DNA of 64,000 nucleotides from positions 62,001 to 126,000 of the forward strand of contig NJIE01000008.1 of NCBI GenBank assembly GCA_002213445.1, written 5' to 3'. The notes below the pieces were generated by a model, which made no database searches, was not told where the DNA came from, and saw nothing but the letters and a program-made list of their open reading frames with translations. The DNA comes from Xenophilus sp. AP218F (GTDB taxonomy: Bacteria > Pseudomonadota > Gammaproteobacteria > Burkholderiales > Chromobacteriaceae). Shown here piece by piece: positions 9,714-33,510 of the stretch. The position numbers and the translations under genes were made by a program. Position 1 is the first letter of the stretch. Each line of letters opens with the position of its first letter.

Positions 9714-10898
9714 ATGCTGAGCCTGCACACCAATATCGCCGCCCTGAACACCAAGGCCAACCTGACCTCGACCCAAAGCGGTCTGTCCACCTCGATGACC
9801 CGCCTGGGCACCGGCCTGCGCATCAACAGCGCCATGGACGACGCCGCCGGCCTGCAGATCGCCACCCGTCTGGACGCGCAAAGCCGCGGCATGACCGTCG
9901 CCATGAAGAACGCCCAGAACGGCATCTCCATGCTGCAAACCGCCGAAGGCGCGCTGGGCGAAGTGACCAACATCCTGCAACGCATGAAGGACTTGGCCAC
10001 CGAAGGCGCCAACGCTACTGCGACCAAGGCCGACAAACAGGCACTGCAAGCCGAGTTCGACGAACTGGGCAAAGAACTGGGCAACATCATGACCAACACC
10101 ACCTTTGGCGGCGAGAAGCTGCTGAAGGGCGGTTCGCTGTCCAAGGAAATGAAGTTCCAGATCGGCGCCGGCGCCCAGGAAAGCATGTCCGTGAATACCA
10201 GCGCCGGCCTGACCGGCCTGTTGGATAAGCTGGACAGCGTGGCTGCCGCCGTCAACGGCCGCACCACGGCCGCCACCGAGGCGATCAAGGGCACCCAGGC
10301 CGCGCATCAGGACTTCCAGGCCAAGCTGGCCAAGTTGGCCTTCGAAAGCGGCAAGGGCACGCCGGTTGCCGGCGATGTGACCGCTGCTGAAACCGCGCTG
10401 AAGGGCGCCGCCGATGCCGTCGTTGCCGCGCGCGGCACGCCTGCTGCTGGTTCTGAGCTGGAACAAGCGACCAACCAGCTGAACGCAGCCATCACGGCGT
10501 ATGGCGCTGCGGCTACTGGCGCGGATCGCAAGGGCCTGCAAGGCGCTCTGGAAGAAAAAATGGGCGCGTTCATGGCGCTGGCCGGCACCGGCGCTGGCGA
10601 CGAAATCACCGGCGATGGCAACGCCGCCGCTTCTATCACCAAGATCAGCGACGCCCTGTCCTCGGTCGGCGACCTGCGCTCCGCCCTGGGCGCCAACGCC
10701 AACCGCCTGAACCACGTGACCAACAACCTGGCCAACATCAACAACAACACCCTGGCCGCCAAGGGTCGCATCATGGATACCGACTTCGCTACCGAAAGCG
10801 CCAGCATGACCTCCAAGCAAATGCTGATGCAGGCCGGCACTTCCATGCTGAAGCAAAGCGCCAGCATGAACAGCCTGGCCATGTCCCTGCTGCAATAA
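9714..10898 (+). CDS. lafA: Lateral-type flagellin
   Basis: A 394-residue flagellin. The D0/D1 N-terminus (about residues 1-165) opens SLHTNIAALNTKANLTSTQ and carries the LGTGLRINSAMDDAAGLQIA motif. The matching C-terminus (about 320-394) has ANRLNHVTNNLANINNNTLAA. The exposed middle, about 170-320, is an alanine-rich, helix-prone stretch rather than a recognised D2/D3 domain. It is monocistronic, with its own terminator. The neighbouring lateral flagellar genes indicate that this is the secondary filament. Confidence 0.93.
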   Translation: MLSLHTNIAALNTKANLTSTQSGLSTSMTRLGTGLRINSAMDDAAGLQIATRLDAQSRGMTVAMKNAQNGISMLQTAEGALGEVTNILQRMKDLATEGANATATKADKQALQAEFDELGKELGNIMTNTTFGGEKLLKGGSLSKEMKFQIGAGAQESMSVNTSAGLTGLLDKLDSVAAAVNGRTTAATEAIKGTQAAHQDFQAKLAKLAFESGKGTPVAGDVTAAETALKGAADAVVAARGTPAAGSELEQATNQLNAAITAYGAAATGADRKGLQGALEEKMGAFMALAGTGAGDEITGDGNAAASITKISDALSSVGDLRSALGANANRLNHVTNNLANINNNTLAAKGRIMDTDFATESASMTSKQMLMQAGTSMLKQSASMNSLAMSLLQ

Positions 10899-10920
10899 GC
10901 GCAAACGCTTCGCACGCATC

Positions 10921-10949
10921 CAGCCAGCGGCTTGCCGCTGGCTTTTTTC
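10921..10949 (+). terminator. Rho-independent terminator after flagellin
   Basis: The stem AGCCAGCGGC / GCCGCTGGCT with a TT loop is followed by TTTTT. It lies 23 bases after the lafA stop. Confidence 0.88.
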
Positions 10950-10973
10950 TTGTCCGCATGAAGGAGCGCCCGC

Positions 10974-11921
10974 ATGGCGGTTTCTCCCGTTTCTCCCGCC
11001 CTGGCGATCGCGCCGCTGCCGGGCGCGGCTTCGCGCTTGCCGCAGCCGGGCGAGGATGTGGCGGCGGTGGCGCGCGGGCCGCGCGCCGACGGCAAGTGGC
11101 TGCTGCAAGGCGAGGGCTGGCAGTGCCTGCTGGACGGCTGGCCCGAGGCCTGGCCGGCCCTGGCGTCGGGCGACGCCTTGCGTTTGCGGGTGTTGAGCTT
11201 GCAGCCGGTCTTGCAGCTTGCCTGGCTGGCGGCGGCCAAGCCGGCCGCGCCCGTCGCGGCGGAAGAAGGGGCGGGTCTGGCGCGCGCCTTGCTGCCGGAG
11301 GCGGCGCTGCAGCCGCGGCTGCAGCCGCGCGAGGCGGCGCCGTCGCAGCTGGCGGAGGCCTGGCATGCCGCCTTGCAGGGGCAGCTGCGCCAGATCCGGC
11401 AACGCTTCCAGCAGCAGGGCGGCCAGGCGGTGTCGGCGCTGCTGTTGCCGCAATGGCAGGCTTTGGCGCAGGCCGACGCGCCGCAGCCGGGCCTGCCCTT
11501 GTGGCTGCCGTTCTGGCTGTGGGGCGGCCCGCGTCTGGCTATGTGGCTGGAGCGGCCTGACGACGACTGGCCGCCGCCGGACGAGACGCTGGCGGATCTG
11601 CTGCTGGAGCTGGAGCTGCCGTTCTGGGGGCGCTTGCGCTTGCGCCTGCGGCGCATGGCGGGCGGGGTGTGGCTGGGGCTGAGCGTTGACGAAGCGCGTT
11701 GCGCGGCCTTGCGCCAGCGCAAGCCGGCGTTGGCCGCTGCGGCGGCGCGAGCGGGCGTCAGGCTGCTGGCCTGCGGCATCGGCCCGCAGCCGCGCTTGCG
11801 CGGCGAGCCGCTGGAGGACGACGTCCTGAAGCTGGACGGCTTGCGTTACCTGCCGCCGCCCAGCCTGTTCGCCGTCGCGGCGGAACTGTTGCTATGCCTG
11901 CGGGAGCCGGACGAAGGTTAA
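10974..11921 (+). CDS. FliK-like protein of unknown role
   Basis: A 315-residue alanine/leucine-rich protein with no signal peptide. The C-terminal third (about residues 215-290) has the alternating pattern of the flagellar hook-length control C-terminal domain: a short strand (WGRLRLRLRR), a second strand (VWLGLSVD), a helix, then a closing strand (GVRLLACGIG). A true fliK (lafE) is present at 27101, so this would be a second FliK-like protein next to flagellin. AAGGAG lies seven bases before the ATG. Domain assignment is by eye. Confidence 0.5.
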   Translation: MAVSPVSPALAIAPLPGAASRLPQPGEDVAAVARGPRADGKWLLQGEGWQCLLDGWPEAWPALASGDALRLRVLSLQPVLQLAWLAAAKPAAPVAAEEGAGLARALLPEAALQPRLQPREAAPSQLAEAWHAALQGQLRQIRQRFQQQGGQAVSALLLPQWQALAQADAPQPGLPLWLPFWLWGGPRLAMWLERPDDDWPPPDETLADLLLELELPFWGRLRLRLRRMAGGVWLGLSVDEARCAALRQRKPALAAAAARAGVRLLACGIGPQPRLRGEPLEDDVLKLDGLRYLPPPSLFAVAAELLLCLREPDEG

Positions 11922-12847
11922 GCCTCGGCGGCGGCGCTGGCTTCCACCGCGCTGGTGACCACGTTCTTGATCTGCAGGGCGAGGATGGAGCCGGGAGTGG
12001 GTTTGCCGACGTAATAGACGCCGTGGGTTTGCAAGGCTTGCTGCAGGGCCTGCTCGTGTTGCTGGGCGTAGCCGGTGAGCACGATGATGGGCGTGTGCGC
12101 GGTGCGGCGGCGGATGGCTTCGATCATCGCCATGCCGTTCTGGTCCCCGCCCAGGACCCAGTCCAGCACGAAGGCGTCGAAGTGCTCGCGCGGCAGGGCT
12201 TCCAGCAATTGCTCCGGCCGCTGGTAGGGCAGGGCGAACAGGCCGTGCTGCACCAGGATGGCGGAGAGCAGATCGGCGTCGGTGTCGTCCAGCACGCCGA
12301 CCAGCAGACGCTTGCTGTTGGCCCTTTTGGGCGGGCGTATGGTCAGGTAGCTGACTTCGAAGCCGCCTTCCAGGTCGTGCAGCGTGCCGGGGTAGACGTG
12401 CCAGCAGTCGCGGATGCGCATCGCCATGAACAGCGGCGCGCAGGAGTCGTCGGCCAGCGATTCGCCCAGCTGCACCCAGCAATGGGCTTCGCCGGACAAG
12501 TCGTTCAGGTGCAGGATGGCCGGGATCAGTTCTGCCTCGCAGGGCAGGTTTTCCTTGCGGGCTTCGTGGTCCACCAGCAAGGAGGCGGCGCTGACGTTGA
12601 AGTACTGCGCCAGCTGCTCCACTTGCTGCAGCTGCCAGGCGCTGCTGCCGTTGAGCTTGCGGTAGGCCTGCGAGGTGCTCAGGCCGAGTATCTGTTCCAG
12701 CAGCGAGGCTTGCTGTTGTTCTGGCCAGCGGAATTGTTCCAGGTGGCGGCGGATGTTGTCGCAGATGATCTGGTTGGCGTCTTTGTGCGTGGTCATGGTG
12801 GGCGGCGTTCGGTGGGTGAACATGGCCTCATCGTAGCACTTTGCCAT
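11918..12847 (-). CDS. BetR-type HTH response regulator
   Basis: About 309 residues. The N-terminal helix-turn-helix resembles the BetR domain (DNIRRHLEQFRWPEQQQASLL and LGLSTSQAYRKLNG). A linker follows, then a C-terminal receiver domain with all key residues: the acidic pair in GVLDDTDAD, phospho-acceptor Asp in FVLDWVLGG, Thr in VLTGYA and Lys in YVGKPT. No histidine kinase is adjacent. The start is uncertain. ATG at 12847 has GGAAA six bases upstream, while ATG at 12823 and 12796 are alternatives. Its stop overlaps the stop of the convergent FliK-like gene. It sits where a flagellar regulator would be expected. Confidence 0.78.
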   Translation of the reverse strand: MAKCYDEAMFTHRTPPTMTTHKDANQIICDNIRRHLEQFRWPEQQQASLLEQILGLSTSQAYRKLNGSSAWQLQQVEQLAQYFNVSAASLLVDHEARKENLPCEAELIPAILHLNDLSGEAHCWVQLGESLADDSCAPLFMAMRIRDCWHVYPGTLHDLEGGFEVSYLTIRPPKRANSKRLLVGVLDDTDADLLSAILVQHGLFALPYQRPEQLLEALPREHFDAFVLDWVLGGDQNGMAMIEAIRRRTAHTPIIVLTGYAQQHEQALQQALQTHGVYYVGKPTPGSILALQIKNVVTSAVEASAAAEA

Positions 12848-12874
12848 TCTTGATTTCCATGTCATCGCAAAAAA

Positions 12875-12932
12875 TGGCACTTATTGCATGAAGTGCGAAT
12901 GCGCATTGGCATTCTCGCAACATGATAATCAT
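12875..12932. promoter_or_regulatory. Cluster of palindromes upstream of the BetR-type regulator
   Basis: Within 60 bases lie GCACTT-N8-AAGTGC (12877-12896), the perfect palindrome AATGCGCATT (12898-12907) and the near-palindrome ATGATAATCAT just after it. CATTCTC occurs twice. This is the spacer between the end of flhA and the BetR gene. Autoregulatory sites are plausible. The hairpin could also end flhA transcription. Confidence 0.4.
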
Positions 12933-12993: not shown

Positions 12994-15084
12994 TCAGCCC
13001 AGCGTGCCGGTGAGATTGATTTCGCGGTTTTCCGGAATTTCGTTGTAGGACAACACGTTGAGGCCGGGCGCGAACAGCCGGCCGTAGCGCGCCAGCAGCG
13101 GGCGGATTTGCGGCATCACCAGCAGCACTGGCGGGTAGCCTTGCTGTTTCATCTGGTCGCGGATCACCGGCATATTGGCCTGCAGCTGCTGCAGCACGTT
13201 GGGGTCGATGGGGAAGCTGTCCAGCTGCGGCTTGCCGGTTTGCTGGGCTTGCGACAGCGCCGAGAGCAGCAGGTTTTCCAGCTCGGCCGACAGGTTGAAG
13301 GCGGCCAGGTTGCCGCGCGGGCCGGCGATGGCCTGCACGATCTGGCGCTTGAGCGCGCAGCGCGCCTCGGCGGCCAGCATGATGGCGTCCTTGGTGGAAT
13401 CGCTGGCGTCCACCAGCGCGCTGGCCAGCGGCACGATGTCTTTCAGCGACACGTTGTCGGCCAGCAGCTGGCGATAGACGCGCAATTGCTGCATGGGGTT
13501 GAGCGCGGCAGCCAGCGAGGCGGCCAGCTTGGGGGCCAGCGCGGCCAGCCGCTCGCCTAGCGCGGTGACGTCGTCGTGCTGGAACAGTTCGGCCATGTGG
13601 CCGCGCATGGTCTTGTTCAGATGGGTGGCGATGACGCTGGCGCAATCCACCACCTGATAGCCCAGCCCCAGCGCCTTGCTCTTGTCTTCCGCGGCGATCC
13701 AGGTGACCGGCATGGCGAAGGCCGGGTCCACGCCGGGGATGCCGTCGATCTGGCCGTAGACTTCCGGCGAGGGGATGGCCATTAGCCGGTCGGGGTAGAC
13801 CTCGCCTTCGGCTACGGTGTTGCCGGAGATCTGGATGGCGTATTGCGAGGGCTTCAGCCGCAGATCGTCGCGCAGGCCGACGCGGGGCATCAGGATGCCC
13901 ATGCTTTCGCTCAGGCTCTGGCGCACGCCCTTGACCCGTTTGGCCAGCGGCGCGCCCTGCGTTTTGTCCAGCAGCGTCACCAGCTTGTAGCCCAGCGCCA
14001 CCGACAGGGTGTCGGCGTAGGGCAGGCTGTTCCATTCCAGTTCGATGTCGGCGTCGCCGGCGATGGCGGCCTTGACCGCGCTGTGGTCCAGCGGATTGGG
14101 CTCTACCTTCTGGCGCTCGTGCAAGCGCCAGGCGACGAATCCCAGCAGCAGGGCAAAGCCCAGGAACGGCGCCCACGGCATGCCCGGGATCGCCGCCAGG
14201 ATCAGCATCATGCCGGCCGCGCTCATCAGCACGCTGGGCGAGGCCAGCATCTGGCTGCCCACTTGCTGCTGCATGTCGCCGTCGTCGCTGATGCGGGTGA
14301 CGATGATGGCGGCGGCGGAGGAGAGCAAGAGCGCGGGGATCTGCGCCACCAGGCCGTCGCCTATGGTCATCAGCGCGTACTGGCGGAAGGCGTCGCCGGC
14401 GGAGAGATCGTGCATCAGCGCGCCGATGGCCACGCCGCCGAACAGGTTGATGATCAGGATCAGGATGCCGGCGATGGCGTCGCCGCGCACGAACTTGGAC
14501 GCGCCGTCCATCGCGCCGTAGAAGTCGGCTTCCGTGGCGATGTCGCGGCGGCGTTGCTGCGCCTGTTCCTGGTTGATCAGGCCGGCGTTGAGGTCGGCGT
14601 CGATGGCCATCTGCTTGCCGGGCAGGGCGTCCAGCGTGAAACGCGCCGACACTTCGGAAATGCGTTCCGCGCCCTTGGTCACCACCATGAAGTTGATGAT
14701 CATCAGGATGACGAACACCACCATGCCCACCACGAAGTTGCCGCCTATCACCACGTTGCCGAAGGCTTCGATCACCTTGCCCGCCGCGTGGGTGCCTTCG
14801 TGGCCGTGCAGCAGCACCACGCGGGTGGAGGCGACGTTCAGCGACAGCCTGAGCAGGGTGGTGGCCAGGATGATGGTGGGGAACACCGAGAAGTCCAGCG
14901 GCCGCCTGGCCGACACGCTGACCAGAATGACGATGATGGCCAGCACGATGTTGAAGGTGAACAGCAGGTCCAGCGCCAGGGGCGGCAAGGGCAGCATCAC
15001 CATGGCCAGGATGGCCAGCAGGAACAGCGGGGCGGCAAGCTTGTGGCGGCCGATGTCGGCCAGGAGTCGGGTCATCGAGTTCAT
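12994..15084 (-). CDS. flhA: Flagellar type III export protein FlhA (lateral)
   Basis: A 696-residue inner-membrane export-gate protein. The N-terminal ~330 residues contain about eight membrane segments (PLFLLAILAMVMLPLPPLAL and others) and the FHIPEP-type cytoplasmic loop (VSARFTLDALPGKQMAIDADLNAG). The soluble C-terminal half forms the export-platform ring that docks chaperone-substrate complexes. Full length and intact. It is the last gene of the fliM-N-P-Q-R-flhB-flhA operon and overlaps flhB by 4 bases. Confidence 0.95.
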   Translation of the reverse strand: MNSMTRLLADIGRHKLAAPLFLLAILAMVMLPLPPLALDLLFTFNIVLAIIVILVSVSARRPLDFSVFPTIILATTLLRLSLNVASTRVVLLHGHEGTHAAGKVIEAFGNVVIGGNFVVGMVVFVILMIINFMVVTKGAERISEVSARFTLDALPGKQMAIDADLNAGLINQEQAQQRRRDIATEADFYGAMDGASKFVRGDAIAGILILIINLFGGVAIGALMHDLSAGDAFRQYALMTIGDGLVAQIPALLLSSAAAIIVTRISDDGDMQQQVGSQMLASPSVLMSAAGMMLILAAIPGMPWAPFLGFALLLGFVAWRLHERQKVEPNPLDHSAVKAAIAGDADIELEWNSLPYADTLSVALGYKLVTLLDKTQGAPLAKRVKGVRQSLSESMGILMPRVGLRDDLRLKPSQYAIQISGNTVAEGEVYPDRLMAIPSPEVYGQIDGIPGVDPAFAMPVTWIAAEDKSKALGLGYQVVDCASVIATHLNKTMRGHMAELFQHDDVTALGERLAALAPKLAASLAAALNPMQQLRVYRQLLADNVSLKDIVPLASALVDASDSTKDAIMLAAEARCALKRQIVQAIAGPRGNLAAFNLSAELENLLLSALSQAQQTGKPQLDSFPIDPNVLQQLQANMPVIRDQMKQQGYPPVLLVMPQIRPLLARYGRLFAPGLNVLSYNEIPENREINLTGTLG

Positions 15085-16223
15085 GATGCGGGCTTGGGGT
15101 CGGCCATGTCGCGCGGAATGGGCAGGTCTGCCGGCAGGCTGGGCAGGCTGCGCCGGGTTCCGGCGTTAAAGGCTTTGAGTTGCAGGACATAGGTCAACAC
15201 TTGCGCCACGGCGCGGTACAGCGGCGCGGGAATCTGCTGGTTGACCTGGGTGGTGTGGTAAACCGCGCGCGCCAGGGGCGGCAGCGGCACCACGGTCACG
15301 TCGTGCTCCGCCGCCAGCTTGCGGATGTAGAGCGCCATCTCGTCCACGCCCTTGGCGACGATGAACGGGGCTTCCGCGCGCGCTTCGTCGTACTTGAGCG
15401 CCACCGCGTAATGGCTGGGGTTGACGATGACCACGTCGGCGCCGGGCACGGCCTTGCGCGCGCCGCGCTGCGCCATCTGCTGCTGCAGCTGGCGGATGCG
15501 TTGCTTGACTTCCGGGCGGCCTTCGCTGGTCTTGTGCTCTTCCTTGATGTCCTGCTTGCTCATCTTCTGCTGGCGCAGGAACAGGAATACCTGCAGCGGC
15601 AGGTCCAGCAGCGCGAACAGCAGGAACACGCCGGCCAGTTGCAGCAGGCAGCCGAGCAGCAGGTCCGCGCCGGCGGCAAGGGCCTGCGGCAGCGGCGCGC
15701 TGTGCAAGGCGAAGAAATCGGCCAGCGCCGCGCGGGCCACCAGATACAGCAGCCAGCCCAGGAACAGCGCCTTGGCGATGGACTTGCCGATTTCGGCGGC
15801 TTGCCGGGCGGAGACGACGCGGCTGAAGTGGGCCAGCGGGTTGAAGCGTTCCAGCTTGGGGCTGAGCAGGTTGAGGACGAAGACCCAGCCGCCGGGGAAG
15901 AAGGAAACCAGCAGCATCAGGGCGGGGATCAGGGCCAGCGGCAGCAGCATCTTGACCAGCAACAGCAGGCTGCCGCCGAACAGCTTGGACCAGCTGTTTT
16001 CCAGCGCGCCCGCGCCGGCTAGCGGCGCGAAGGCCAGCGCGAACAGCTGGCGGAAATCATCCAGCCAGCCCGGCGCCAGCCAGAAGGCGAGCTTGAGCGC
16101 CAGGATCAGTCCCAGCGCGGCGGCCAGGTCCTTGGAGCGCGGCACCTGGCCTTGCTCGCGCGCCTTGCGCAGCTTCTGGGGGGTGGCCTGTTCGGTCTTG
16201 TCGCCGTTGCGCTGCTCAGCCAT
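15081..16223 (-). CDS. flhB: Flagellar export switch protein FlhB (lateral)
   Basis: A 380-residue protein with four membrane segments followed by the cytoplasmic autocleavage domain. FlhB switches export from rod/hook to filament substrates. The usual Asn-Pro-Thr-His cleavage motif is replaced by NPSH at residues 268-271, a conservative Thr-to-Ser change that keeps the Asn-Pro bond. The N-terminus (NGDKTEQATPQKLRKAREQGQVPRS) is typical. It overlaps fliR by 8 bases and flhA by 4. Confidence 0.94.
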   Translation of the reverse strand: MAEQRNGDKTEQATPQKLRKAREQGQVPRSKDLAAALGLILALKLAFWLAPGWLDDFRQLFALAFAPLAGAGALENSWSKLFGGSLLLLVKMLLPLALIPALMLLVSFFPGGWVFVLNLLSPKLERFNPLAHFSRVVSARQAAEIGKSIAKALFLGWLLYLVARAALADFFALHSAPLPQALAAGADLLLGCLLQLAGVFLLFALLDLPLQVFLFLRQQKMSKQDIKEEHKTSEGRPEVKQRIRQLQQQMAQRGARKAVPGADVVIVNPSHYAVALKYDEARAEAPFIVAKGVDEMALYIRKLAAEHDVTVVPLPPLARAVYHTTQVNQQIPAPLYRAVAQVLTYVLQLKAFNAGTRRSLPSLPADLPIPRDMADPKPAS

Positions 16224-17001: not shown

Positions 17002-17274
17002 CTAACCCACCTGGCTTGCGGCGCGGGCGAACATTTCCACGCAGAAATCCATCAGATAGCCGGTGATCCAGTGGCCGGCCAGCGCGATGGTGAGCAGCAC
17101 CACCAGCAGCCGCGGCAGGAAGGACAGCGTCTGTTCGTTGATCTGGGTGGCGGCCTGGACCAGGCTGACGATGACGCCGACGATCAGGCTGGGCAGCACC
17201 AGCAGCACCACCAGGGTGACCACCACGCGCAGGCTGTCGTTGACGATGTCGACGGCGATGTCGGGAGTAAGCAT
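17002..17274 (-). CDS. fliQ: Flagellar export protein FliQ (lateral)
   Basis: A 90-residue protein with two membrane hairpin segments. The family signature SLIVGVIVSLVQAATQINEQ is intact. Four FliQ subunits pack around the FliP5FliR1 core. Its position directly between fliP and fliR is canonical. Confidence 0.94.
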   Translation of the reverse strand: MLTPDIAVDIVNDSLRVVVTLVVLLVLPSLIVGVIVSLVQAATQINEQTLSFLPRLLVVLLTIALAGHWITGYLMDFCVEMFARAASQVG

Positions 17275-19358: not shown

Positions 19359-19371
19359 GGCTAATAAATCG

Positions 19372-26420: not shown

Positions 26421-26440
26421 AATCGTTAACGGAAACCGGA

Positions 26441-26830: not shown

Positions 26831-27104
26831 GGCCGAAGCCTGGCGCGACGCCTTGCGTCAGGCCGCCCGACGGCGCGACTGGGAGGCGTTGTCGCTGCTG
26901 GATGGCCAGTTGCAGCGGCAGCTGGCCACCGGGGCCTGGCAGCCGGCGGACGAAGCGCGGCGCATGCTGGCCGAGACGTACCGCGAGCTCATGGCCTTGC
27001 GCCAGGCGGAGGCCAATTTGCTGCAGCAAAGGCTGCACGCTCTGGATCAACAGCGCGAGGCGCAGCTCGCCTACGCGCAAGTCAGCGATTGGAATGACGC
27101 ATGA
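26820..27104 (+). CDS. lafD: FliT-like chaperone
   Basis: A 94-residue charged helical protein in the place where lateral clusters encode LafD, a FliT-like chaperone for the cap protein. Sequence alone is weak evidence, as small helical chaperones diverge quickly. The call relies on size, predicted helices and position between lafC and lafE. Confidence 0.65.
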   Translation: MPPKAEAWRDALRQAARRRDWEALSLLDGQLQRQLATGAWQPADEARRMLAETYRELMALRQAEANLLQQRLHALDQQREAQLAYAQVSDWNDA

Positions 27105-28084
27105 CACGAATCTCCCCCCCTGCCCAGGCAGGGGTTTCGCCATTGCCGGACGACGCCGTCCTGTCGGCGCCCGCGCCCGCGGCGGAGCCGGGGCTGGACG
27201 CCATGCCGGCTGATTTCGCCGCCGTCTTGCAGCAGGCCGGCGTGGCCGAGCCCGCGCCGGCCCCCGCCGTCGCGGTCGACAAGGCCGGCGGCGAGGCGAA
27301 AGCGACCGACGAAGGCGTTGACGAGCAGGCGGCCGCGCAGCCGCAGCCGGCCGCGGCGCCGCTGGCCTTGCCGGCCATGGCCATGCTGCAACCCGAAGCG
27401 GCGGCGCGCTGGAGCCAGCCGCAGCCCGCGGCGAGCGCTGCCGGCGGCCAAGCGCAGGCTACGGTGGAAGCGCTGGCCGCCGCGGCGCAACCCGAGGCCC
27501 TGCTTGCGCAGGCGCAGCCCAAACCCGGGACGACGCCGGCCGCGGCGGCCCCTGCGTGGGTGGAGCCTGTCGCCGTCGGCGACGACCTCAAGCCCTTGCC
27601 TGCGCCGGCTTTGCCGCATGCGCTGGCGGCGCAGCCCGAACGCCTGGCCCCGGAGGGCGGCGAGATCCGTCTGCCGGCCGCGGAGCCGGCGCGCTGGGGC
27701 GAGCAGTTGCGCGCGGCCCTGGGCGAGCGCCTGCAGCTGCATAGCAGCCAGGGCATGGATCGGGCGCTGATCCGTCTGGACCCGCCGGCGCTCGGCACGC
27801 TGGAAATCTCTATCCGCCACCAGGCCGGCGCGCTGGCGGTGCAGCTCACCGCTTCCAACGGCGAAGTGCTGCGCCAGTTGCAGCACATCGGCGACGCGCT
27901 GCGCCACGATTTGTCCAGCCGCCACTATCAGCAGGTGGCGGTGGATATCCGCGAGGGCGCGCCAGGCGGCTTCTCCCAGGGCCGCCAGGGCCGCCATGAC
28001 GGCCAGCCGCAGCGCGAGCCGGGCAGGGCGCTGGCCGACGCGGCCTGGGACGGCAACGCCGTCTTCGGTCTGGAACAGGCCTGA
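27101..28084 (+). CDS. lafE: Flagellar hook-length control protein (FliK-like)
   Basis: A 327-residue protein. The first ~200 residues are Ala/Pro/Gln-rich and disordered, as in FliK rulers. The C-terminal substrate-switch domain (about 205-300) reads SSQGMDRALIRLDPPALGTL and then GALAVQLTASNGEVLRQLQ. It is exported, measures the hook and triggers FlhB switching. ATGA overlap with lafD. Confidence 0.9.
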   Translation: MTRISPPAQAGVSPLPDDAVLSAPAPAAEPGLDAMPADFAAVLQQAGVAEPAPAPAVAVDKAGGEAKATDEGVDEQAAAQPQPAAAPLALPAMAMLQPEAAARWSQPQPAASAAGGQAQATVEALAAAAQPEALLAQAQPKPGTTPAAAAPAWVEPVAVGDDLKPLPAPALPHALAAQPERLAPEGGEIRLPAAEPARWGEQLRAALGERLQLHSSQGMDRALIRLDPPALGTLEISIRHQAGALAVQLTASNGEVLRQLQHIGDALRHDLSSRHYQQVAVDIREGAPGGFSQGRQGRHDGQPQREPGRALADAAWDGNAVFGLEQA

Positions 28085-28109: not shown

Positions 28110-28547
28110 ATGAACAAGAAAACGATTCTGATCGCCCTCGTCGTGGCGCTGCTGGTGGGCGGCGCGGGCGGCGGCGGCTGGTGGTATTACCAGCAGCGGG
28201 AAGACGCCGCGCCGCCGCAGCCTGAAGCGGTGGAGTACCGCTTCGTCAGCCTGGACAAGACCATCGTGATGCTGCGCAGCGAGGCGGGCGGCGAGCCGAG
28301 CTACATGGCGGTGGACCTGGTGTTCCGCAGCACGCTGGAAGACGAGCGCAAGGTCAAGGACCAGCTGCCCATGCTCAAGAGCGTGGCGGTGCGTGTCCTG
28401 TCGCAACTGTCGCGCGAGCGCGCCGGCAAGCTCGGCATCGAAGCCTATCAGCAGCTGCTGAGCCAGGCTTACGCCGCCGCTTACCGCCGCGAGGGCCAGC
28501 CCAGCCCCTTCCGCGAGGTGATGATCAGCAAGTTGATCATCGAATAA
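28110..28547 (+). CDS. lafF: FliL-like stator-associated protein
   Basis: A 145-residue protein with one N-terminal membrane anchor (residues 5-25) and a periplasmic domain ending VREVMISKLIIE-like, the usual FliL end. FliL forms rings around the MotAB stator. In lateral gene order it precedes the sigma factor. Confidence 0.88.
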   Translation: MNKKTILIALVVALLVGGAGGGGWWYYQQREDAAPPQPEAVEYRFVSLDKTIVMLRSEAGGEPSYMAVDLVFRSTLEDERKVKDQLPMLKSVAVRVLSQLSRERAGKLGIEAYQQLLSQAYAAAYRREGQPSPFREVMISKLIIE

Positions 28548-28549
28548 AC

Positions 28550-29245
28550 ATGTACGCCGAATCCTACGCTTCCCATTCCTTGAGCGGCGCGGACGACGAG
28601 GCGCGCCAGCTGCGGCGCTACGCGCCGCTGGTCAAGCGGGTGGCGCGCCAGCTCGCCAGCCAGGCCGGCTGCGTCTTCGACCGGGAGGACATGGAGCAGA
28701 TCGGGCTGATGGCGCTGCTCGACTGCCTGCGTCGCTACGGCGAGCCGGACGAGGGCTTCGGCGGCTTCGCCATGCTGCGCATCCGGGGCGCGATTCTGGA
28801 CGAGCTGCGGCGGCTGGACTGGCGGCCGCGCGGCTTGCGCCAGGATAGCCACCGGCTGCGCGACGGCGCGCGCCGGCTGCGTCGCGAGCTGGGGCGGGAA
28901 CCGAGCGAGGCCGAGCTGATGCAGGCGCTGGGCCTGGACGAGGCGGCGTACCGGGAAATCGCCCAGGCGGAAAACGCCGAGGCGATGGCCAGTTTCGACG
29001 AGTTGTTGAGCGCCGGCCTGGAACTGGGCCAGTGCGAGGGGCCGGAGGCGGGCATCGCGCTGCGCGACGAGTTGGCGCAGGCGCTGGGCGCGCTCAATCC
29101 GCGCGAGCAGCAGGTGATCCAGTTGTATTACGAGTTTGAGCTGAGCCTGAAGGAAATCGCGGCGGTGCTGGAAGTGAGCGAAGCCCGGATCTGTCAGATC
29201 AACAAGAGCGCATTGAAGAAGATGCAGGCCAGCCTGACGGCCTGA
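28550..29245 (+). CDS. lafS: Flagellar sigma factor sigma-28 (FliA-like)
   Basis: A 231-residue sigma-28. Region 2 is seen in VKRVARQLASQAGCVFDREDMEQIGLMALLD, region 3 near residues 100-130 and region 4 in LNPREQQVIQLYYEFELSLKEIAAVLEVS. It should direct late flagellar genes. Its likely antagonist FlgM is encoded 2.9 kb downstream. Start lies 2 bases after lafF. Confidence 0.93.
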   Translation: MYAESYASHSLSGADDEARQLRRYAPLVKRVARQLASQAGCVFDREDMEQIGLMALLDCLRRYGEPDEGFGGFAMLRIRGAILDELRRLDWRPRGLRQDSHRLRDGARRLRRELGREPSEAELMQALGLDEAAYREIAQAENAEAMASFDELLSAGLELGQCEGPEAGIALRDELAQALGALNPREQQVIQLYYEFELSLKEIAAVLEVSEARICQINKSALKKMQASLTA

Positions 29246-29257: not shown

Positions 29258-30124
29258 ATGCAGCAATTATTCGGCATTTTGATAGTACTGGTTTGCGTGT
29301 TCGGCGGCTTCATGCTGCACGGCGGCATCATGTCCGTGATCTGGCAGCCGGTGGAGCTTCTGATCATCTGCGGCGCGGCGGTCGGAGCCATCGTCCTTGG
29401 CAACCCCAAGCACGTGCTGACGGAGATGATGGGCCAGATCCGGCGCGTGGGACGGCGCAAGAAATACGACGCCGAATTCCAGCGCCAGCTGCTGCTGTTG
29501 ATGTACGAGCTGCTGATCACCGCCAGCCAGGGCCTCAAGGCGCTGGACCAGCACGTGGAAGCGCCGCGGCAGAGCACGCTGTTCAACCGCTACCCGCTGG
29601 TGCTGGAGGAACCCAAGCTGCTGGCCTTCATCGTCGACAATTTCCGCTTGATGGCGATGGGCAAGATCAACGCCCACGAGTTGGAAGGCGTGCTGGATCA
29701 GGAAATCGAAGCCATTCACGAAGAGCTCAACCAGCCTTCCAAATCCTTGCACAAGATCGCGGAGGCGATGCCGGGCTTCGGCATCCTGGCGGCGGTGCTG
29801 GGCATCGTGATGGCGATGAACAGCGTCAGCCAGGGCGCGACGGCGGGCGAGATCAGCGAGAAGGTCGCGGCGGCGATGGTGGGCACCTTCATCGGCATTT
29901 TCTTCTGTTACGGCGTGCTGGACCCGCTCTCCAACATGATGCACCAGCTGGTCAAGCAGGAGCTGTCCAATTTCGAATCGGTGAAGGTGGTGCTGACCAC
30001 CCACGCTTCCGGCAAGCCGCCGCTGCTGGCCATCGACGCCGGCCGCCGCCTGGTGCAGCTCAATACCAAGCCGAGCTTCGCCCAGCTGGAAAACTGGATC
30101 AACACCCTGGAAGGCGTGGCTTGA
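29258..30124 (+). CDS. lafT: Flagellar stator protein MotA-like
   Basis: A 288-residue membrane protein with four membrane segments. Signature parts are MPGFGILAAVLGIVMAMNSV and a large cytoplasmic loop with charged residues for FliG contact (KKYDAEFQRQLLLLMYELL). It is closer to proton-type MotA/LafT than to sodium-type PomA by overall length and loop, though ion choice is not proven by sequence. Confidence 0.94.
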   Translation: MQQLFGILIVLVCVFGGFMLHGGIMSVIWQPVELLIICGAAVGAIVLGNPKHVLTEMMGQIRRVGRRKKYDAEFQRQLLLLMYELLITASQGLKALDQHVEAPRQSTLFNRYPLVLEEPKLLAFIVDNFRLMAMGKINAHELEGVLDQEIEAIHEELNQPSKSLHKIAEAMPGFGILAAVLGIVMAMNSVSQGATAGEISEKVAAAMVGTFIGIFFCYGVLDPLSNMMHQLVKQELSNFESVKVVLTTHASGKPPLLAIDAGRRLVQLNTKPSFAQLENWINTLEGVA

Positions 30125-30128: not shown

Positions 30129-31079
30129 ATGGCGTTGAACAACAAGCGCGAACACGAAGCGGCGGTCATCAAGAAAGTCTCCCGGCGCAGCGACGGGGAA
30201 GGGCACGGCGGCGCGTGGAAAGTGGCGTTCGCCGACTTCGTGCTGGCCCTGATGTGCCTGTTCCTGGTGCTGTGGGTGCTGGCGGCGCGCGATCAGGAAA
30301 ACCTGCAGCAGCTGTTGTCGGCCAGCGGCGGCAGCCCCCTGCAGGAGGCCGGCAACGGCAAGGCGATAGAGCGCATGGGCACGCCGCGCGGCAGCCTGAT
30401 CCCGCGCGAGCCGGTGCCTGGACAGGAGACGCGGGCGCGCGATAGCAGCCGGCCGTCCAGCATCGAAAGCGACAACCCGCGCCGCAGCCTGGATAGCCAG
30501 GCCGACTTGCAAAAGCTGGCCAACGTGCTGGCTGAAATGAGCGAGAAGGCCGGCTTGTCCAGCAACTTGCAGACCGTGATCACGCCTTACGGCCTGCGCG
30601 TGACGCTGCACGACACCGACAACCAGGGGATGTTCGAGCGCGGCAGCGCCATCGTCGATCCGCGCTTCAAGTCCTTGCTGCGGCAGATGGGCGGCATGCT
30701 CGGCCGCATCGACAACCGTTTGCTGCTGGTGGGGCATACCGACGCCGCGCAGTACCAGAGCCCGGCGGCGGGCTTCGCCGCCATGTCCAACTGGAGTTTG
30801 TCCAGCAACCGGGCGATGGCGGCGCGCATGCACCTGATGCAAGGCGGTCTGGCGGCGGATAGCGTGTTGCAGGTGGTGGGCATGGCCGATCGCGCGCCGC
30901 TGGACGCGCAGCGTCCGCTGGCGGCGATCAACCGCCGCATCGAGTTGCTGATTCTGACCAGCGGCCAGGCGCAGGCGGTCGTGGCGATGTACGGCGCGGC
31001 TCCGGATCAGACCGGCGTCTTGCCCGGAACCGGGAGCGCCTTGCCGAACCGGGAGGTTCTGGAGCAATTGCGTAAATAA
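30129..31079 (+). CDS. lafU: Flagellar stator protein MotB-like
   Basis: A 316-residue protein. A single membrane helix follows the cytoplasmic N-terminus. It carries the ion-binding aspartate Asp36 in VAFADFVLALMCLFLVLWVL. The C-terminal OmpA-like peptidoglycan-binding domain (about 160-280) includes LLLVGHTDAAQ and NRRIELLILT. It pairs with lafT, 4 bases upstream. Confidence 0.93.
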   Translation: MALNNKREHEAAVIKKVSRRSDGEGHGGAWKVAFADFVLALMCLFLVLWVLAARDQENLQQLLSASGGSPLQEAGNGKAIERMGTPRGSLIPREPVPGQETRARDSSRPSSIESDNPRRSLDSQADLQKLANVLAEMSEKAGLSSNLQTVITPYGLRVTLHDTDNQGMFERGSAIVDPRFKSLLRQMGGMLGRIDNRLLLVGHTDAAQYQSPAAGFAAMSNWSLSSNRAMAARMHLMQGGLAADSVLQVVGMADRAPLDAQRPLAAINRRIELLILTSGQAQAVVAMYGAAPDQTGVLPGTGSALPNREVLEQLRK

Positions 31080-31244: not shown

Positions 31245-31319
31245 ATAATTAATAATGTTGACAGCATGCCTGCATGTATTGCGCTCGGCAGGGGTAGGAC
31301 TGTCAGGGACACGTATGTG

Positions 31320-32006
31320 ATGAATCAAGAACGAGTAAGCACCTTTCTGCAAGACACGCCGTTATTTGGACATTTGGACACGGAGAAACTCAATCTGGCC
31401 CTGGAGCGCGCCGAGGCCAAGAGACTGATCAAAGGAGAAGTTCTGTACACCGACCAGTCGGCATCGGAGTCGGTTTACTTGCTGCTGGCGGGCAGCGTGC
31501 AGTTGTTTGTATCGGATGGCGGCGCCAAGCGCTACGTGCTGCAAACCTTGGTGGCCGGCGATCTGCTGGGCATGGATTCCTATATAGACGCCGGGATGCG
31601 CGGCAACAGCTGCATCGCGGACGAGGATACCCTGTTGCTGGAGTTTCATCGGGCCGATCTGGCCGGTTTGTTCGATAGCGCCGATGGTTTGCCGCGTTGC
31701 GAAAAAGTGCGCAGCAAGATCATGTGCTATCTGGTGTCCCTGCTTCGTCGTGTGACGACGCTGGCGCGCAACCTGGCCTTGCTGGACGTGTACGGCCGCG
31801 TTCGCATCCTGATCAACCAGATGCTGATCGAACAGGATGGCGTGATGATCCTGCGCAAGCAGCTGACGCAGCAGGAAATCGCCGATCAGATCGGCTCCTC
31901 GCGCGAAATGGTGGCGCGGATTCTCAAGGAGCTGGTCTACGGCCGCTACATTTGCATGGATAACCGCCGGATCGTGGTGCTCAAGCCGCTGCCGGAGAAT
32001 TTCTAA
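31320..32006 (+). CDS. Crp/Fnr family transcriptional regulator
   Basis: A 228-residue protein. The N-terminal cyclic-nucleotide-binding-like beta barrel covers about residues 12-120, and the C-terminal helix-turn-helix includes LTQQEIADQIGSSREMVARILKELV. No Fnr-type N-terminal cysteine cluster is visible, so it is not a classical oxygen sensor. The residues expected for cAMP binding are not obvious either. ATG at 31320 is preferred for the AGGGAC upstream. Its place inside the flagellar block suggests it controls these genes, possibly through the GTGA-N4-TCAC elements nearby. Confidence 0.88.
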   Translation: MNQERVSTFLQDTPLFGHLDTEKLNLALERAEAKRLIKGEVLYTDQSASESVYLLLAGSVQLFVSDGGAKRYVLQTLVAGDLLGMDSYIDAGMRGNSCIADEDTLLLEFHRADLAGLFDSADGLPRCEKVRSKIMCYLVSLLRRVTTLARNLALLDVYGRVRILINQMLIEQDGVMILRKQLTQQEIADQIGSSREMVARILKELVYGRYICMDNRRIVVLKPLPENF

Positions 32007-32127
32007 ACCGGCGTCATTGTTTCAAGTTGCAACATCAGGGGCTGCGCGGCATTGCGACGGCCCCTTAAGCTTTTCAGGCCTGGGGTCGCCTGTTAGGGGT
32101 GTCCCCGACTTTGTCCGAGTAAGAATC

Positions 32128-32394
32128 ATGCAAATCACTCCCCGTTCCCTTCTTGCCCGCGAGCTGAGCGCCAGCGGAAAAGCGCAATCCAAAGCCGAAG
32201 CTTTGCCGCAGCCGGCCGCTGCCGCGGCGGGCGACGGGGCCTTGGCTTCCGCCGCGGCCGGTTTGCAGGCGCTGCCTGAGGTCGATTTGTCGCGGGTGGC
32301 GGAGGTGAAGCAGGCCTTGGCGCGCGGCGAGGTGCAATTCGACGCGCAGCGCCTGGCCGACCTGGTGGCGCGCTATCACGGAGGCCGGGAGTGA
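32128..32394 (+). CDS. flgM: Anti-sigma-28 factor FlgM
   Basis: An 88-residue FlgM. The family C-terminus is clear (DLSRVAEVKQALARGEVQFDAQRLADLVARY). FlgM binds sigma-28 until hook completion, when it is exported. ATG at 32128 fits the family length. It overlaps flgN (GTGA). It presumably holds LafS. Confidence 0.9.
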   Translation: MQITPRSLLARELSASGKAQSKAEALPQPAAAAAGDGALASAAAGLQALPEVDLSRVAEVKQALARGEVQFDAQRLADLVARYHGGRE

Positions 32395-32819
32395 GTCGCC
32401 AGGCATTGTTCGAACAGTTGCTGCAAACCGTGCAGCGCGATCTGCGCGACTACCCGAAGATGGAAGCCTGTCTGGAGGCGCAATTCGCCGCGGCGCTGGC
32501 GCATGATGCGGAGGGCATGCGTCGCTGCGCCGACCAGCTTGGCGCTTTGTGCGCGGCGCTGGAGGAGAGTCGTCGCGAGCGGCGACGGCTGGCCGCCGCC
32601 GTCTTGCTGCGCGAGCATGATCTGTCGATGACGGCCTTGTTCGCCTTGCTGCCGGCCGCGGCGCGCGAGGCTTGCGAGCGGCGCTGGCGGCAGCTGCTGG
32701 CGCATGTCGAGCGTTGTCGCGATCTGAATCTGCGCAACGGCGGGCTGCTGCGGCAGCAGCAGCAAGTGCTGGCGCGCGTGCTGGAAGGAGGGGCGGGCGA
32801 TGTTTACCATGCGCAGTGA
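32391..32819 (+). CDS. flgN: Flagellar chaperone FlgN-like
   Basis: A 142-residue helical protein in the FlgN position, directly after flgM. FlgN escorts the hook-filament junction proteins FlgK and FlgL. GTG start overlaps the flgM stop. No flgK or flgL is in this window, so its clients are encoded elsewhere. Confidence 0.82.
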   Translation: MSRQALFEQLLQTVQRDLRDYPKMEACLEAQFAAALAHDAEGMRRCADQLGALCAALEESRRERRRLAAAVLLREHDLSMTALFALLPAAAREACERRWRQLLAHVERCRDLNLRNGGLLRQQQQVLARVLEGGAGDVYHAQ

Positions 32820-33510
32820 GGGTACTCAGGCCGCGGCCTGGCAGGGCGATTGGCGGGAAGTGGCCCTGCCGCTGGCGGGAGAACCGGGCGACTTTGCCGG
32901 GCAGCTCTCCCAGGTGCGGGCCGAGGTGGAGCGTTTCATCGCCGAGGGCGCGGATGCGCCGACGTCTTCGCTGGGCGGCGTATCGCCGGAGGCGGGCTGG
33001 TTGCGGCAGCGGCTGGGCGCGCTTGAGCCCTTGGCGCCGGACTGGTCCGAATCCAGGTGCGATTTCGTGCGGCAATTGCTGCCTCACGCGCAGGCTGCCG
33101 CGCGCCAGTTGGGCGTCGCTCCGGATATTTTGCTGGCCCACGCGGCGCTGGAATCCGGCTGGGGCAAGCGCCCGCTGACGCGCGCGGACGGCAGCGACAC
33201 CTTCAATTTCTTCGGCCTCAAGGCTGGAGCGGGTTGGCGCGGCGAGGTCAATCTGGCGGAAACCAGCGAGTATGTGGCCGGGCGCAAGGTGTCGCGGCGC
33301 GAAGCGTTTCGCGCCTATCCCGATCCGGGCGCGGCGTTTGCCGACTACGCGGCGATGCTGGCCGGCAACCCGCGCTATCGGGCCGCGCTGGGCGTGGGGG
33401 CGGATGCCGAGGCGTTTGCCGGCGCGCTGGCGAGGGGAGGCTACGCGACCGATCCGGCGTATGCCGGCAAGCTGGCGGGGCTGGTGCGGGAGATGCGAGC
33501 CGGCGGCTGA
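32800..33510 (+). CDS. FlgJ-like glucosaminidase without rod domain
   Basis: A 236-residue protein. The C-terminal part (about residues 85-235) is the glucosaminidase/muramidase domain of FlgJ: LLPHAQAAARQLGVAPDILL with the catalytic Glu in AALESGWGKRP, then FFGLKAGAGW and AYPDPGAAFADYAAMLAGNPRY. Classical FlgJ has an N-terminal rod-cap domain of about 150 residues. Here only about 85 unrelated residues precede the enzyme. No signal peptide is visible. It probably opens peptidoglycan for rod growth. It overlaps flgN by 20 bases. Confidence 0.82.
   Translation: MFTMRSEGTQAAAWQGDWREVALPLAGEPGDFAGQLSQVRAEVERFIAEGADAPTSSLGGVSPEAGWLRQRLGALEPLAPDWSESRCDFVRQLLPHAQAAARQLGVAPDILLAHAALESGWGKRPLTRADGSDTFNFFGLKAGAGWRGEVNLAETSEYVAGRKVSRREAFRAYPDPGAAFADYAAMLAGNPRYRAALGVGADAEAFAGALARGGYATDPAYAGKLAGLVREMRAGG

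What the first reader, a model, noticed from the sequence alone, without database searches (positions are those of the whole stretch)
9714..33510. Secondary flagellar cluster in lateral gene order but without LafK
The order fliM-N-P-Q-R-flhB-flhA divergent from fliE-F-G-H-I-J, then cap, FliS, FliT-like, FliK, FliL, sigma-28, MotA, MotB, reproduces the lateral systems of Vibrio and Aeromonas. In those systems LafK, a sigma-54 activator, lies between the two arms. Here only a 215-base promoter region lies there. No sigma-54 activator is found anywhere in the block. A BetR-REC protein and a Crp/Fnr protein are the only regulators present, so the control logic is probably different.
Basis: partly seen in the sequence, partly recalled or inferred. 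Interest (0 to 1): 0.7.

Follow-up and report, generated by a model that had tools for sequence, protein, structure and literature searches.

The report
Lateral flagella under a Crp-type switch
This bacterium has a second, lateral-type set of flagellar genes that lacks the usual master switch (LafK); a Crp-family regulator encoded beside the genes, with a matching DNA site placed between the two main operons, appears to have taken its place.

Summary
A lateral-type (Flag-2-like) cluster lies at 9714-33510 in a Chromobacterium genome that also carries a primary flagellar set. The fliM2 and fliE2 arms are separated by 215 bases without LafK. Six full sigma-54 activators exist elsewhere; none has a FleQ domain, and the nearest to E. 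coli LafK (42%) sits beside the primary fliE. Absence of LafK is the rule in this clade: 0 of 107 loci (window included) show a sigma-54 activator, whereas the E. coli Flag-2 control does. Eight lateral promoter regions lack the sigma-54 sites that four primary ones show; FlhC was found in 0 of 61 family genomes.

In place of LafK there is a conserved palindrome, GTGA-W4-TCAC, centred 30 nt from both divergent -10 boxes in the window; many relatives carry one per promoter, 22 bp apart. It recurs at fliD2, at fliC2 (also where fliC2 lies elsewhere) and at a primary flagellin. It was present in 19 of 19 examined clusters with the linked Crp/Fnr gene (31266-32006) and in 0 of 3 family clusters without. 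That protein has Crp's recognition helix. BetR-REC is confined to Chromobacterium in this family. Binding is inferred, not shown; the spacer is 2 bp shorter than Crp's.

The parts
9608..9619 (+). degenerate operator upstream of fliC2 (GGCAATTTTCAC, 2 mismatches to GTGAANNTTCAC); several relatives have GTGATTTTTCAC here
   Evidence: relatives
9632..9657 (+). sigma-28-like promoter of fliC2 (TTAAG ... GTCGCC)
   Evidence: read from sequence; box names by analogy, not tested
9714..10898 (+). fliC2, lateral-type flagellin
   Evidence: Pfam Flagellin_N/C
10974..11921 (+). 315-aa Ala/Pro-rich protein, no Pfam or NCBIfam hit; 35-40% homologues in the same place in Pseudogulbenkiania, Vogesella, Craterilacuibacter
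11918..12880 (-). BetR-REC response regulator, after flhA2 on the same strand
   Evidence: Pfam BetR 1e-48, Response_reg 1e-11; distribution
12994..15084 (-). flhA2
   Evidence: 61.6% to E. coli Flag-2 FlhA
15081..16223 (-). flhB2
   Evidence: 44% to E. coli Flag-2 FlhB
16216..16995 (-). fliR2
   Evidence: 40% to E. coli Flag-2
17002..17274 (-). fliQ2
   Evidence: 55% to E. coli Flag-2
17287..18033 (-). fliP2 (start placed by homology; the open frame runs to 18426)
   Evidence: Pfam FliP 7e-71; 60.5% to E. coli Flag-2
18033..18386 (-). fliN2
   Evidence: 49% to E. coli Flag-2
18410..19252 (-). fliM2
   Evidence: Pfam FliMN_C; 24% to E. coli Flag-2 FliM
19253..19467 (.). 215-base divergent promoter region in the place of lafK
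19313..19318 (-). -10-like box TAAGAT of fliM2
   Evidence: conserved in relatives
19343..19354 (.). operator palindrome GTGAAAATTTAC, centre 30 nt from both -10 boxes
19379..19384 (+). -10-like box TAAAAT of fliE2
   Evidence: conserved in relatives
19468..19806 (+). fliE2
   Evidence: 43% to E. coli Flag-2
19803..21503 (+). fliF2
   Evidence: 40% to E. coli Flag-2; no significant match to own primary FliF
21487..22548 (+). fliG2
   Evidence: 47% to E. coli Flag-2, 29% to own primary FliG
22545..23234 (+). fliH2
   Evidence: 37% to E. coli Flag-2
23238..24551 (+). fliI2
   Evidence: 67% to E. coli Flag-2, 51% to own primary FliI
24548..24988 (+). fliJ2
   Evidence: 32% to E. coli Flag-2
24985..24996 (.). 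operator palindrome GTGAATATTCAC (perfect) ahead of fliD2, overlapping the end of fliJ2
25021..25027 (+). conserved CGTCGCC, sigma-28-like -10 of fliD2; GTCGC begins 31 nt from the palindrome centre
25074..26420 (+). fliD2 (cap)
   Evidence: Pfam FliD_C/FliD_N
26417..26830 (+). fliS2
   Evidence: Pfam FliS
26820..27104 (+). FliT-like ORF (position only, no Pfam hit)
27101..28084 (+). fliK2
   Evidence: Pfam Flg_hook
28110..28547 (+). fliL2
   Evidence: Pfam FliL
28550..29245 (+). fliA2, sigma-28 of the FliA/WhiG type; best NCBIfam model PRK12427 (256 bits, below its cut-off 339), over the cut-offs of FliA_WhiG and PRK06986 FliA
29258..30124 (+). motA2
   Evidence: Pfam MotA_N, MotA_ExbB
30129..31079 (+). 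motB2
   Evidence: Pfam MotB_plug, OmpA
31266..32006 (+). Crp/Fnr-family regulator, proposed activator replacing LafK (likely start 31317 GTG or 31320 ATG)
   Evidence: Pfam cNMP_binding, HTH_Crp_2, Crp; conservation
32017..32394 (+). flgM2, anti-sigma-28
   Evidence: Pfam FlgM
32391..32819 (+). flgN2
   Evidence: Pfam FlgN
32800..33510 (+). glucosaminidase (FlgJ-like lytic half)
   Evidence: Pfam Glucosaminidase

Best explanation
This is a complete lateral-type (Flag-2/Laf-like) flagellar system whose sigma-54 master activator LafK is absent. Its early operons are instead driven by divergent promoters with -10 boxes but no sigma-54 sites. They are most likely activated by the linked Crp/Fnr-family protein (31266-32006) bound to a GTGA-W4-TCAC palindrome. 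The palindrome centre lies about 42 nt upstream of the presumed start sites, the class II activator position. In this genome one palindrome serves both arms; in many relatives two palindromes 22 bp apart each serve one arm. The same protein would act at fliD2 (the operon that carries the lateral sigma-28) and at flagellin promoters, including one primary flagellin, so one regulator could switch between filaments. SHOWN by computation: cluster identity, absence of LafK, lack of sigma-54 sites, the palindrome, its fixed spacing, its regulon-like distribution, its co-occurrence with the crp-like gene, and the Crp-type recognition helix. INFERRED: that this protein binds the palindrome, that it activates rather than represses, the start sites, and any ligand.
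For: (1) No LafK: 0 of 107 FliF2-clade loci show a sigma-54 activator over 80 bits; the E. coli Flag-2 control does. (2) sigma-54 consensus: 4 of 11 primary regions (flgB, flgG, flgJ, fliK) score 18-19 of 20 (P<=0.001); 8 of 8 lateral regions score at most 14 (P>=0.30). (3) FlhC in 0 of 61 family genomes. (4) The palindrome in the fliM2-fliE2 gap has 0-1 mismatch in 19 of 19 crp+ clusters, against 0 of 3 crp- family clusters and 0 of 5 clusters outside the family (22 of the family's 33 FliF2 matches were fetched). (5) The fliM-side centre is 29-30 nt from the -10 box in 16 of 19; the fliE-side centre is 30-31 nt in 11 of 19, the other 8 keeping only a half-site at fliE. (6) All 43 perfect GTGAANNTTCAC sites in 111 sequences (some genomes twice; 21 of 21 without the named loci) lie in the fliM2-fliE2 or fliJ2-fliD2 gap. 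(7) At fliD2, 17 of 19 clusters have the site with at most 1 mismatch, and in 17 of those 17 GTCGC begins 31-33 nt from its centre. (8) GTGATTTTTCAC or GTGATTATTCAC stands 11-12 nt before [TC]TTAA ahead of fliC2 in five genomes where fliC2 is not beside the cluster. (9) Genomes with both gene and cluster have 4.14 GTGAWWWWTCAC sites on average (29), those with neither 1.37 (27), Mann-Whitney P=3e-10. (10) The crp-like gene co-occurs with FliF2: 29 both, 3 FliF2 only, 2 crp only, 27 neither. (11) SREMVAR is the same in 30 of 30 homologues extracted and aligns with SRETVGR of E. coli CRP.
Against: No binding or expression data. The half-sites are 4 bp apart, not the 6 of Crp and Fnr sites (recalled), so the protein would need a different dimer geometry, or another protein binds. 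Co-occurrence is partly phylogenetic and was not corrected for descent. Two genomes keep the gene without the cluster (G074, G156). Three have FliF2 without the gene (G806, G811, and incomplete G800). The window's fliM/fliE site has one mismatch and its fliC2 site two. No palindrome within 2 mismatches was found ahead of the crp gene in the window, nor within 3 at flgA2/flgB2. Three clusters place the fliM-side site at 41-42 nt. L103 and L111 lack a good fliD2 site and L296 a fliC2 site. Of the five exact GTGAWWWWTCAC sites in this genome only two are flagellar. The spacing at flagellin genes (11-12 nt before TTTAA, 10 nt before TAAAG) differs from that at fliM/E/D. The -10 boxes are read by eye.
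Confidence: 0.66

Rival explanations
1. The primary system's sigma-54 activator (FlrC-like, contig C3) has taken over from LafK, as FlaK is proposed to do in Plesiomonas shigelloides.
For: Best own-genome match to E. coli LafK is that protein (264 bits, 42%); precedent proposed in Plesiomonas (PMC11242183, passages).
Against: No sigma-54 promoter at eight lateral promoter regions while four primary ones score 18-19 of 20; the match is over the AAA domain that all six full activators share with LafK (39-48% identity). An indirect effect through another regulator is not excluded.
Confidence: 0.08
2. BetR-REC is the true master regulator and binds the palindrome; Crp/Fnr is accessory.
For: BetR-REC follows flhA2 on the same strand; 18 of 18 Chromobacterium genomes with FliF2 have it and G074, which lacks FliF2, lacks it. 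A BetR-REC plus hybrid kinase pair sits exactly in the LafK slot in six loci of Pseudorhodoferax, Acidovorax and Variovorax.
Against: No BetR-REC at E<=1e-20 in 43 of 61 family genomes, including 8 clusters outside Chromobacterium that carry the palindrome.
Confidence: 0.1
3. A global regulator present with or without the lateral cluster binds the palindrome.
For: The site also precedes a primary flagellin in four Chromobacterium genomes and an HD-domain gene in one; the 4-bp spacer does not fit canonical Crp.
Confidence: 0.14

Closest known systems
E. coli Flag-2 / Vibrio and Aeromonas lateral (Laf) flagellar systems
   Same: Same divergent arms and gene order; 13 of 13 proteins compared match E. 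coli Flag-2, and in the 7 cases where the own primary counterpart also matches, Flag-2 scores higher (primary FlhA, FlhB and FliQ were not compared); own sigma-28, own MotA/MotB.
   Different: No LafK in the slot; no sigma-54 promoters seen; palindrome plus linked Crp-family gene instead; lateral flg operon on another contig (C30) in this genome. Vibrio and Aeromonas were not compared by sequence.
Plesiomonas shigelloides lateral flagella
   Same: LafK missing from the lateral cluster (PMC11242183, passages).
   Different: There a polar sigma-54 activator (FlaK) is proposed to act instead; here no sigma-54 sites are seen.
Burkholderia dolosa putative lateral flagella (lafA)
   Same: Betaproteobacterial lateral system; the paper lists C. 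violaceum among organisms with LafA homologues and notes a CheY-like response regulator beside lafA (PMC5773237, passages and section 17).
   Different: The word lafK does not occur in its main text, and the passages I saw propose shared polar regulators rather than a dedicated one; I did not examine that genome.
Pseudomonas fluorescens F113 second flagellum
   Same: Second flagellar system outside the host's usual FleQ control (PMC5031763, passages).
   Different: Run by FlhDC, with Vfr, a Crp homologue, acting on flhDC; FlhC was found in 0 of 61 genomes of this family.
E. coli CRP class II activation
   Same: Recognition helix SRExVxR, GTGA half-sites, site centre about 42 nt upstream of the presumed start (class II geometry recalled).
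   Different: 4-bp instead of 6-bp spacer; the three cAMP contact residues E72, R82, S83 (recalled) are not all present together in any homologue of the alignment.

Membership tests
Lateral / Flag-2 flagellar system | Divergent flhA-flhB-fliR-Q-P-N-M and fliE-F-G-H-I-J arms | tested here: met
Lateral / Flag-2 flagellar system | Core proteins closer to Flag-2 than to the host's primary set | tested here: met
   FliI 67 vs 51%, FliP 61 vs 50%, FliG 47 vs 29%; FliF 40% vs no significant match; primary FlhA, FlhB, FliQ not compared
Lateral / Flag-2 flagellar system | Own cap, FliS, FliK, FliL, sigma-28, MotA, MotB in series | tested here: met
Lateral / Flag-2 flagellar system | LafK between the arms | tested here: not met
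   so it is a LafK-less variant, not a canonical member
Lateral / Flag-2 flagellar system | Second flg rod/hook operon | tested here: met
   contig C30
sigma-54-dependent flagellar regulon | -24/-12 promoters ahead of early operons | tested here: not met
   with four primary operons as positive control
FlhDC-controlled flagellar regulon | FlhC present | tested here: not met
   0 of 61 genomes, E. coli control positive
Crp/Fnr family regulator | cNMP-binding-like domain plus Crp-type HTH | tested here: met
   PDB relatives
cAMP-responsive CRP (equivalog) | NCBIfam PRK11753 cut-off and E72/R82/S83 pocket | tested here: not met
   62.9 bits against cut-off 266; pocket residues not complete in any of 30 homologues by my reading of the alignment (residue numbers recalled)
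Canonical Crp operator | TGTGA-N6-TCACA | tested here: not met
   the conserved sites are GTGA-N4-TCAC; N6 consensus recalled; I did not scan for N6 sites
LafK-replacing activator | Binds the shared promoter and is required for lateral transcription | not testable with these tools
   needs binding and expression data

The most novel reading that the evidence does not exclude
In Chromobacteriaceae a dedicated Crp-family protein that reads a shortened GTGA-N4-TCAC operator has replaced the sigma-54 activator LafK as master regulator of lateral flagella and also touches a primary flagellin promoter. The fliM-fliE slot is a recurrent site of regulator exchange: LafK in E. coli Flag-2, BetR-REC plus hybrid kinase in Pseudorhodoferax, Acidovorax and Variovorax, a FixJ-like regulator in Jeongeupia, and bare operators with a downstream Crp-like gene here.
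Probability: 0.5. Interest if true: 0.74.

Novelty: new variant of a known kind. Interest (0 to 1): 0.62.

Why it matters
Lateral flagella are textbook sigma-54/LafK systems. If the inference holds, a whole organelle programme was rewired from a sigma-54 enhancer-type activator to a sigma-70 class II activator with a single palindrome shared by two divergent operons, while the structural genes stayed put. That gives a small, testable case of master-regulator replacement, and it names a candidate for what controls the lateral flagella of Chromobacterium, whose existence is reported (PMC10847564, passage) but for whose regulator I saw nothing in the listings (one search showed 20 of 95 papers).

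Tried and rejected
FlrC takeover, BetR-REC as the operator-binding protein, FlhDC and FleQ/FlrA were each considered and are disfavoured. I looked for autoregulation of the crp-like gene: no palindrome within 2 mismatches in the window's motB-crp gap; 2-mismatch sites in 3 of 14 relatives. I looked for the palindrome at flgA2/flgB2 in this genome and three relatives: none within 3 mismatches; a different conserved element (GTAATTATTAC, then in two of the three TATCGCC) is there in the three relatives. The one-mismatch site at L028:13480 near flgK2 lies inside flgJ2 and was not pursued. Rex-like (GTGAA-N4-TTCAC) and Crp (N6) operators were considered from memory and do not fit the 4-bp spacer. 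A structure model of the Crp-like protein was requested but was never finished. Two working notes were wrong: one called G794 Jeongeupia (the Jeongeupia locus is L150; G794 is an unnamed genus), and one gave 102 loci for (107).

Full report
WHAT IS THERE. The window is contig C20:62001-126000 of a 3.98-Mb genome. Between 9714 and 33510 lies a full flagellar set. The minus-strand arm is fliM-N-P-Q-R-flhB-flhA followed by a BetR-REC response regulator. The plus-strand arm is fliE-F-G-H-I-J, fliD, fliS, a FliT-like ORF, fliK, fliL, a FliA-type sigma, motA, motB, a Crp/Fnr-family gene, flgM, flgN and a glucosaminidase. Flagellin and an unassigned 315-aa protein lie outside the left arm. The gap between fliM and fliE is 215 bases with no gene called.

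IT IS A SECOND SYSTEM OF LATERAL TYPE. A primary fli set with an adjacent REC-sigma-54 activator is on C3 and there are two flg operons, on C27 and C30. Thirteen of 13 window proteins match E. coli Flag-2; of the primary counterparts compared, seven match too, all with lower scores (FliI 67 vs 51%, FliP 61 vs 50%, FliG 47 vs 29%), and FliF matches Flag-2 at 40% but not the own primary FliF. The best NCBIfam model of the sigma is PRK12427, below its own cut-off.

LAFK IS REALLY ABSENT, AND NOT ONLY HERE. The genome has six full sigma-54 activators: NtrC, the FlrC-like one beside fliE1, two other REC types, a GAF type and a PAS type; none has a FleQ domain. Two further REC proteins with a partial domain give 76 and 71 bits to LafK. 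The best match of E. coli LafK is the FlrC-like one (264 bits, 42%), the other five 180-209 bits. FliF2 relatives at E<=1e-75 were found in 32 of 61 family genomes, at E<=1e-180 in 7 of 399 order genomes and 2 of 369 class genomes, own genome included in each, and 80 named loci (the best 80 of 284) came from a scan of genome contigs. Of 107 loci (window, L096-L121, L127-L206; some short, some the same genome twice) none shows a sigma-54 activator over 80 bits, while the E. coli Flag-2 control does; two of four more distant FliF loci (L123, L124) do as well. Loss of LafK alone is therefore not special to this genome, and Plesiomonas is a published case (PMC11242183, passages).

THE SLOT HAS BEEN FILLED IN DIFFERENT WAYS. 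Six loci of Pseudorhodoferax, Acidovorax and Variovorax have a BetR-REC protein and a hybrid histidine kinase between fliM and fliE; the former is 26% identical to the window's BetR-REC (L156) and both were confirmed by Pfam in that locus. Jeongeupia naejangsanensis has a FixJ-like regulator there. In Chromobacterium a kinase related to that hybrid kinase stands next to BetR-REC at the other end of the arm in 9 of 10 named loci (L130 shows none) and in L241, but not in this window, where the 315-aa gene is the neighbour. Whether a kinase lies elsewhere in this genome was not tested.

SIGMA-54 AND FLHDC ARE NOT USED, AS FAR AS SEQUENCE SHOWS. With one consensus scan and mononucleotide shuffles, four primary regions (flgB, flgG, flgJ, fliK) score 18-19 of 20, reached in at most 1 of 1000 shuffles; seven other primary regions scored 11-15. 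The eight lateral regions score 11-14, reached in 30% or more of shuffles. FlhC was found in 0 of 61 family genomes, with E. coli ringing as control.

AN OPERATOR WITH FIXED GEOMETRY. The gap holds GTGAAAATTTAC at 19343-19354. Its centre is 30 nt from the -10-like box of fliM2 (TAAGAT) and 30 nt from that of fliE2 (TAAAAT). I fetched 22 of the family's 33 FliF2 loci (window included); 19 have the linked Crp-like gene and 3 (L106, L114, L115) do not. In 15 of the 18 crp+ relatives the two boxes are 21-23 bp further apart than in the window (in three, 11 or 34 bp), and there is room for two sites, one per promoter: two sites with at most one mismatch in 9 of 18, one site plus a half-site in 8 (Chromobacterium L096-L103), one site in L112. 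Over the 19, the fliM-side spacing is 29-30 in 16 and 41-42 in 3; the fliE-side spacing is 30-31 in 11. The best site has 0-1 mismatch in 19 of 19 (shuffle P 0.010 or less), and is absent (2-4 mismatches, P 0.16 or more) in the 3 family clusters without the gene and in 5 clusters outside the family. All 43 perfect GTGAANNTTCAC sites in 111 sequences fall in the fliM2-fliE2 or fliJ2-fliD2 gap; 22 of the 43 are in named loci that partly repeat the same genomes. At fliD2 the window has a perfect site; 17 of 19 clusters have it with at most one mismatch, and in 17 of those 17 a GTCGC box begins 31-33 nt from its centre; L103 and L111 have no such site. At fliC2, GTGATTTTTCAC was seen in 4 of 5 relatives examined, L296 lacking it, and the window has a degenerate copy. 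The same kind of site stands 11-12 nt before [TC]TTAA ahead of fliC2 in five genomes where fliC2 is not beside the cluster: in G781 about 83 kb away on one contig, in G769 and G774 on another contig with one of the two in mid-contig, in G772 and G773 on another contig, which an assembly break could explain. A site exactly 10 nt before a TAAAGTT...GCCGAT-type promoter of a primary flagellin gene was seen in this genome and three others; these four were found because of the site, and the primary flagellin promoters of the other nine genomes were not examined.

WHOLE-GENOME CONTROLS. GTGAANNTTCAC occurs 1-6 times in each of 13 genomes, 40 in all, against 18 for the reversed control pattern. GTGAWWWWTCAC averages 4.14 in 29 genomes with both cluster and gene and 1.37 in 27 with neither (P 3e-10). 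The five discordant genomes have 1 (G800), 2 (G806), 2 (G811), 2 (G074) and 0 (G156). In 12 genomes that lack cluster, gene or both, GTGAAWWTTCAC occurs in 5, once each. Other sites do exist and are not explained: inside a BamA-like gene (my reading) in two genomes, ahead of an HD-domain gene in G785, near a pilin-like gene in G074, and in this genome inside a TetR-like gene, in a stretch with no called gene, and 93 bp ahead of a 728-aa ORF.

WHICH PROTEIN. The Crp/Fnr gene follows motB2 and precedes flgN2 and flgJ (with flgM2 where called) in Chromobacterium, Pseudogulbenkiania, Vogesella, Craterilacuibacter and the unnamed genus of G794 at 41-68% identity; in the four genomes looked at outside Chromobacterium the lateral flg operon follows, in G794 after some insertion-like genes. 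By genome, 29 of 61 have both FliF2 and this gene, 3 FliF2 only, 2 the gene only, 27 neither (Fisher P 9e-12, not corrected for descent). In G156 the gene stands where a Vogesella relative has the start of the lateral cluster, which looks like a deletion scar. The recognition helix SREMVAR is the same in all 30 homologues extracted (of 31 matches) and matches SRETVGR of E. coli CRP; that these residues read GTGA is recalled knowledge. The cAMP pocket residues are not complete in any of them by my reading, so the ligand is unknown. BetR-REC is in 18 of 61 genomes, all Chromobacterium, and cannot be the general binder.

MECHANISM, WITH STATUS. Inferred chain: Crp-like dimer on the palindrome, class II activation of fliM2-flhA2-betR and fliE2-J2, then fliD2-fliA2-motAB; FliA2 with FlgM2 then drives flagellin. 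Shown: anatomy, spacing, distribution. Not shown: binding, activation, start sites, operon limits, signal. The main misfit is the 4-bp spacer. The class II position assumes -10 boxes that I read by eye and that are conserved.

LITERATURE. Lateral flagella in C. violaceum are mentioned (PMC10847564, passage) and a betaproteobacterial LafA family is described for B. dolosa and named for C. violaceum (PMC5773237, passages and section 17). Flag-2 with lafK in cluster 1 is described for Enterobacterales (PMC6993521, passages). The listings of searches showed no title or abstract start that names a Crp-family or BetR regulator of lateral flagella in these bacteria; others were capped (20 of 56, 20 of 95, 10 of 24), and subscription papers are not held.

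Noticed in passing
L156, L167, L169, L192, L195, L202 (fliM2-fliE2 gap of about 2.6 kb): A BetR-REC regulator and a convergent hybrid histidine kinase occupy the LafK slot in lateral clusters of Pseudorhodoferax, Acidovorax and Variovorax.
   Followed up: partly
L150 (Jeongeupia naejangsanensis), fliM2-fliE2 gap: A FixJ-like REC-LuxR regulator occupies the LafK slot.
   Followed up: partly
L106 (G773:C31): One Chromobacterium genome carries a second, divergent lateral-type cluster (FliF 53%), so perhaps three flagellar systems; no linked crp-like gene and no palindrome in its gap.
   Followed up: partly
L028:6964-7088; L237, L238, L239 flgA2-flgB2 gaps: A different conserved element (GTAATTATTAC in the three relatives, degenerate in the window's genome) lies at the lateral flg operon, suggesting another regulator there.
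   Followed up: no
window 10974-11921 and L028:15890-16927: Two Ala/Pro-rich proteins with no flagellar family hit, one after flagellin and one after flgL2; positions recall LafW-type hook-associated proteins (recalled).
   Followed up: no
L234 (G794): Six lateral-type flagellin genes within about 8 kb near the cluster.
   Followed up: no
L286 (G074:C73) and L287 (G156:C1): The crp-like gene persists without the lateral cluster, in G074 near chemotaxis-like genes (my reading) and in G156 at what looks like a deletion scar.
   Followed up: partly
L228:5497 (G785): The palindrome lies 20 bp upstream of an HD-domain (HD_5) protein gene.
   Followed up: no
window 34113-36153: LPP20-type lipoprotein and FlgT genes follow the lateral block.
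   Followed up: no
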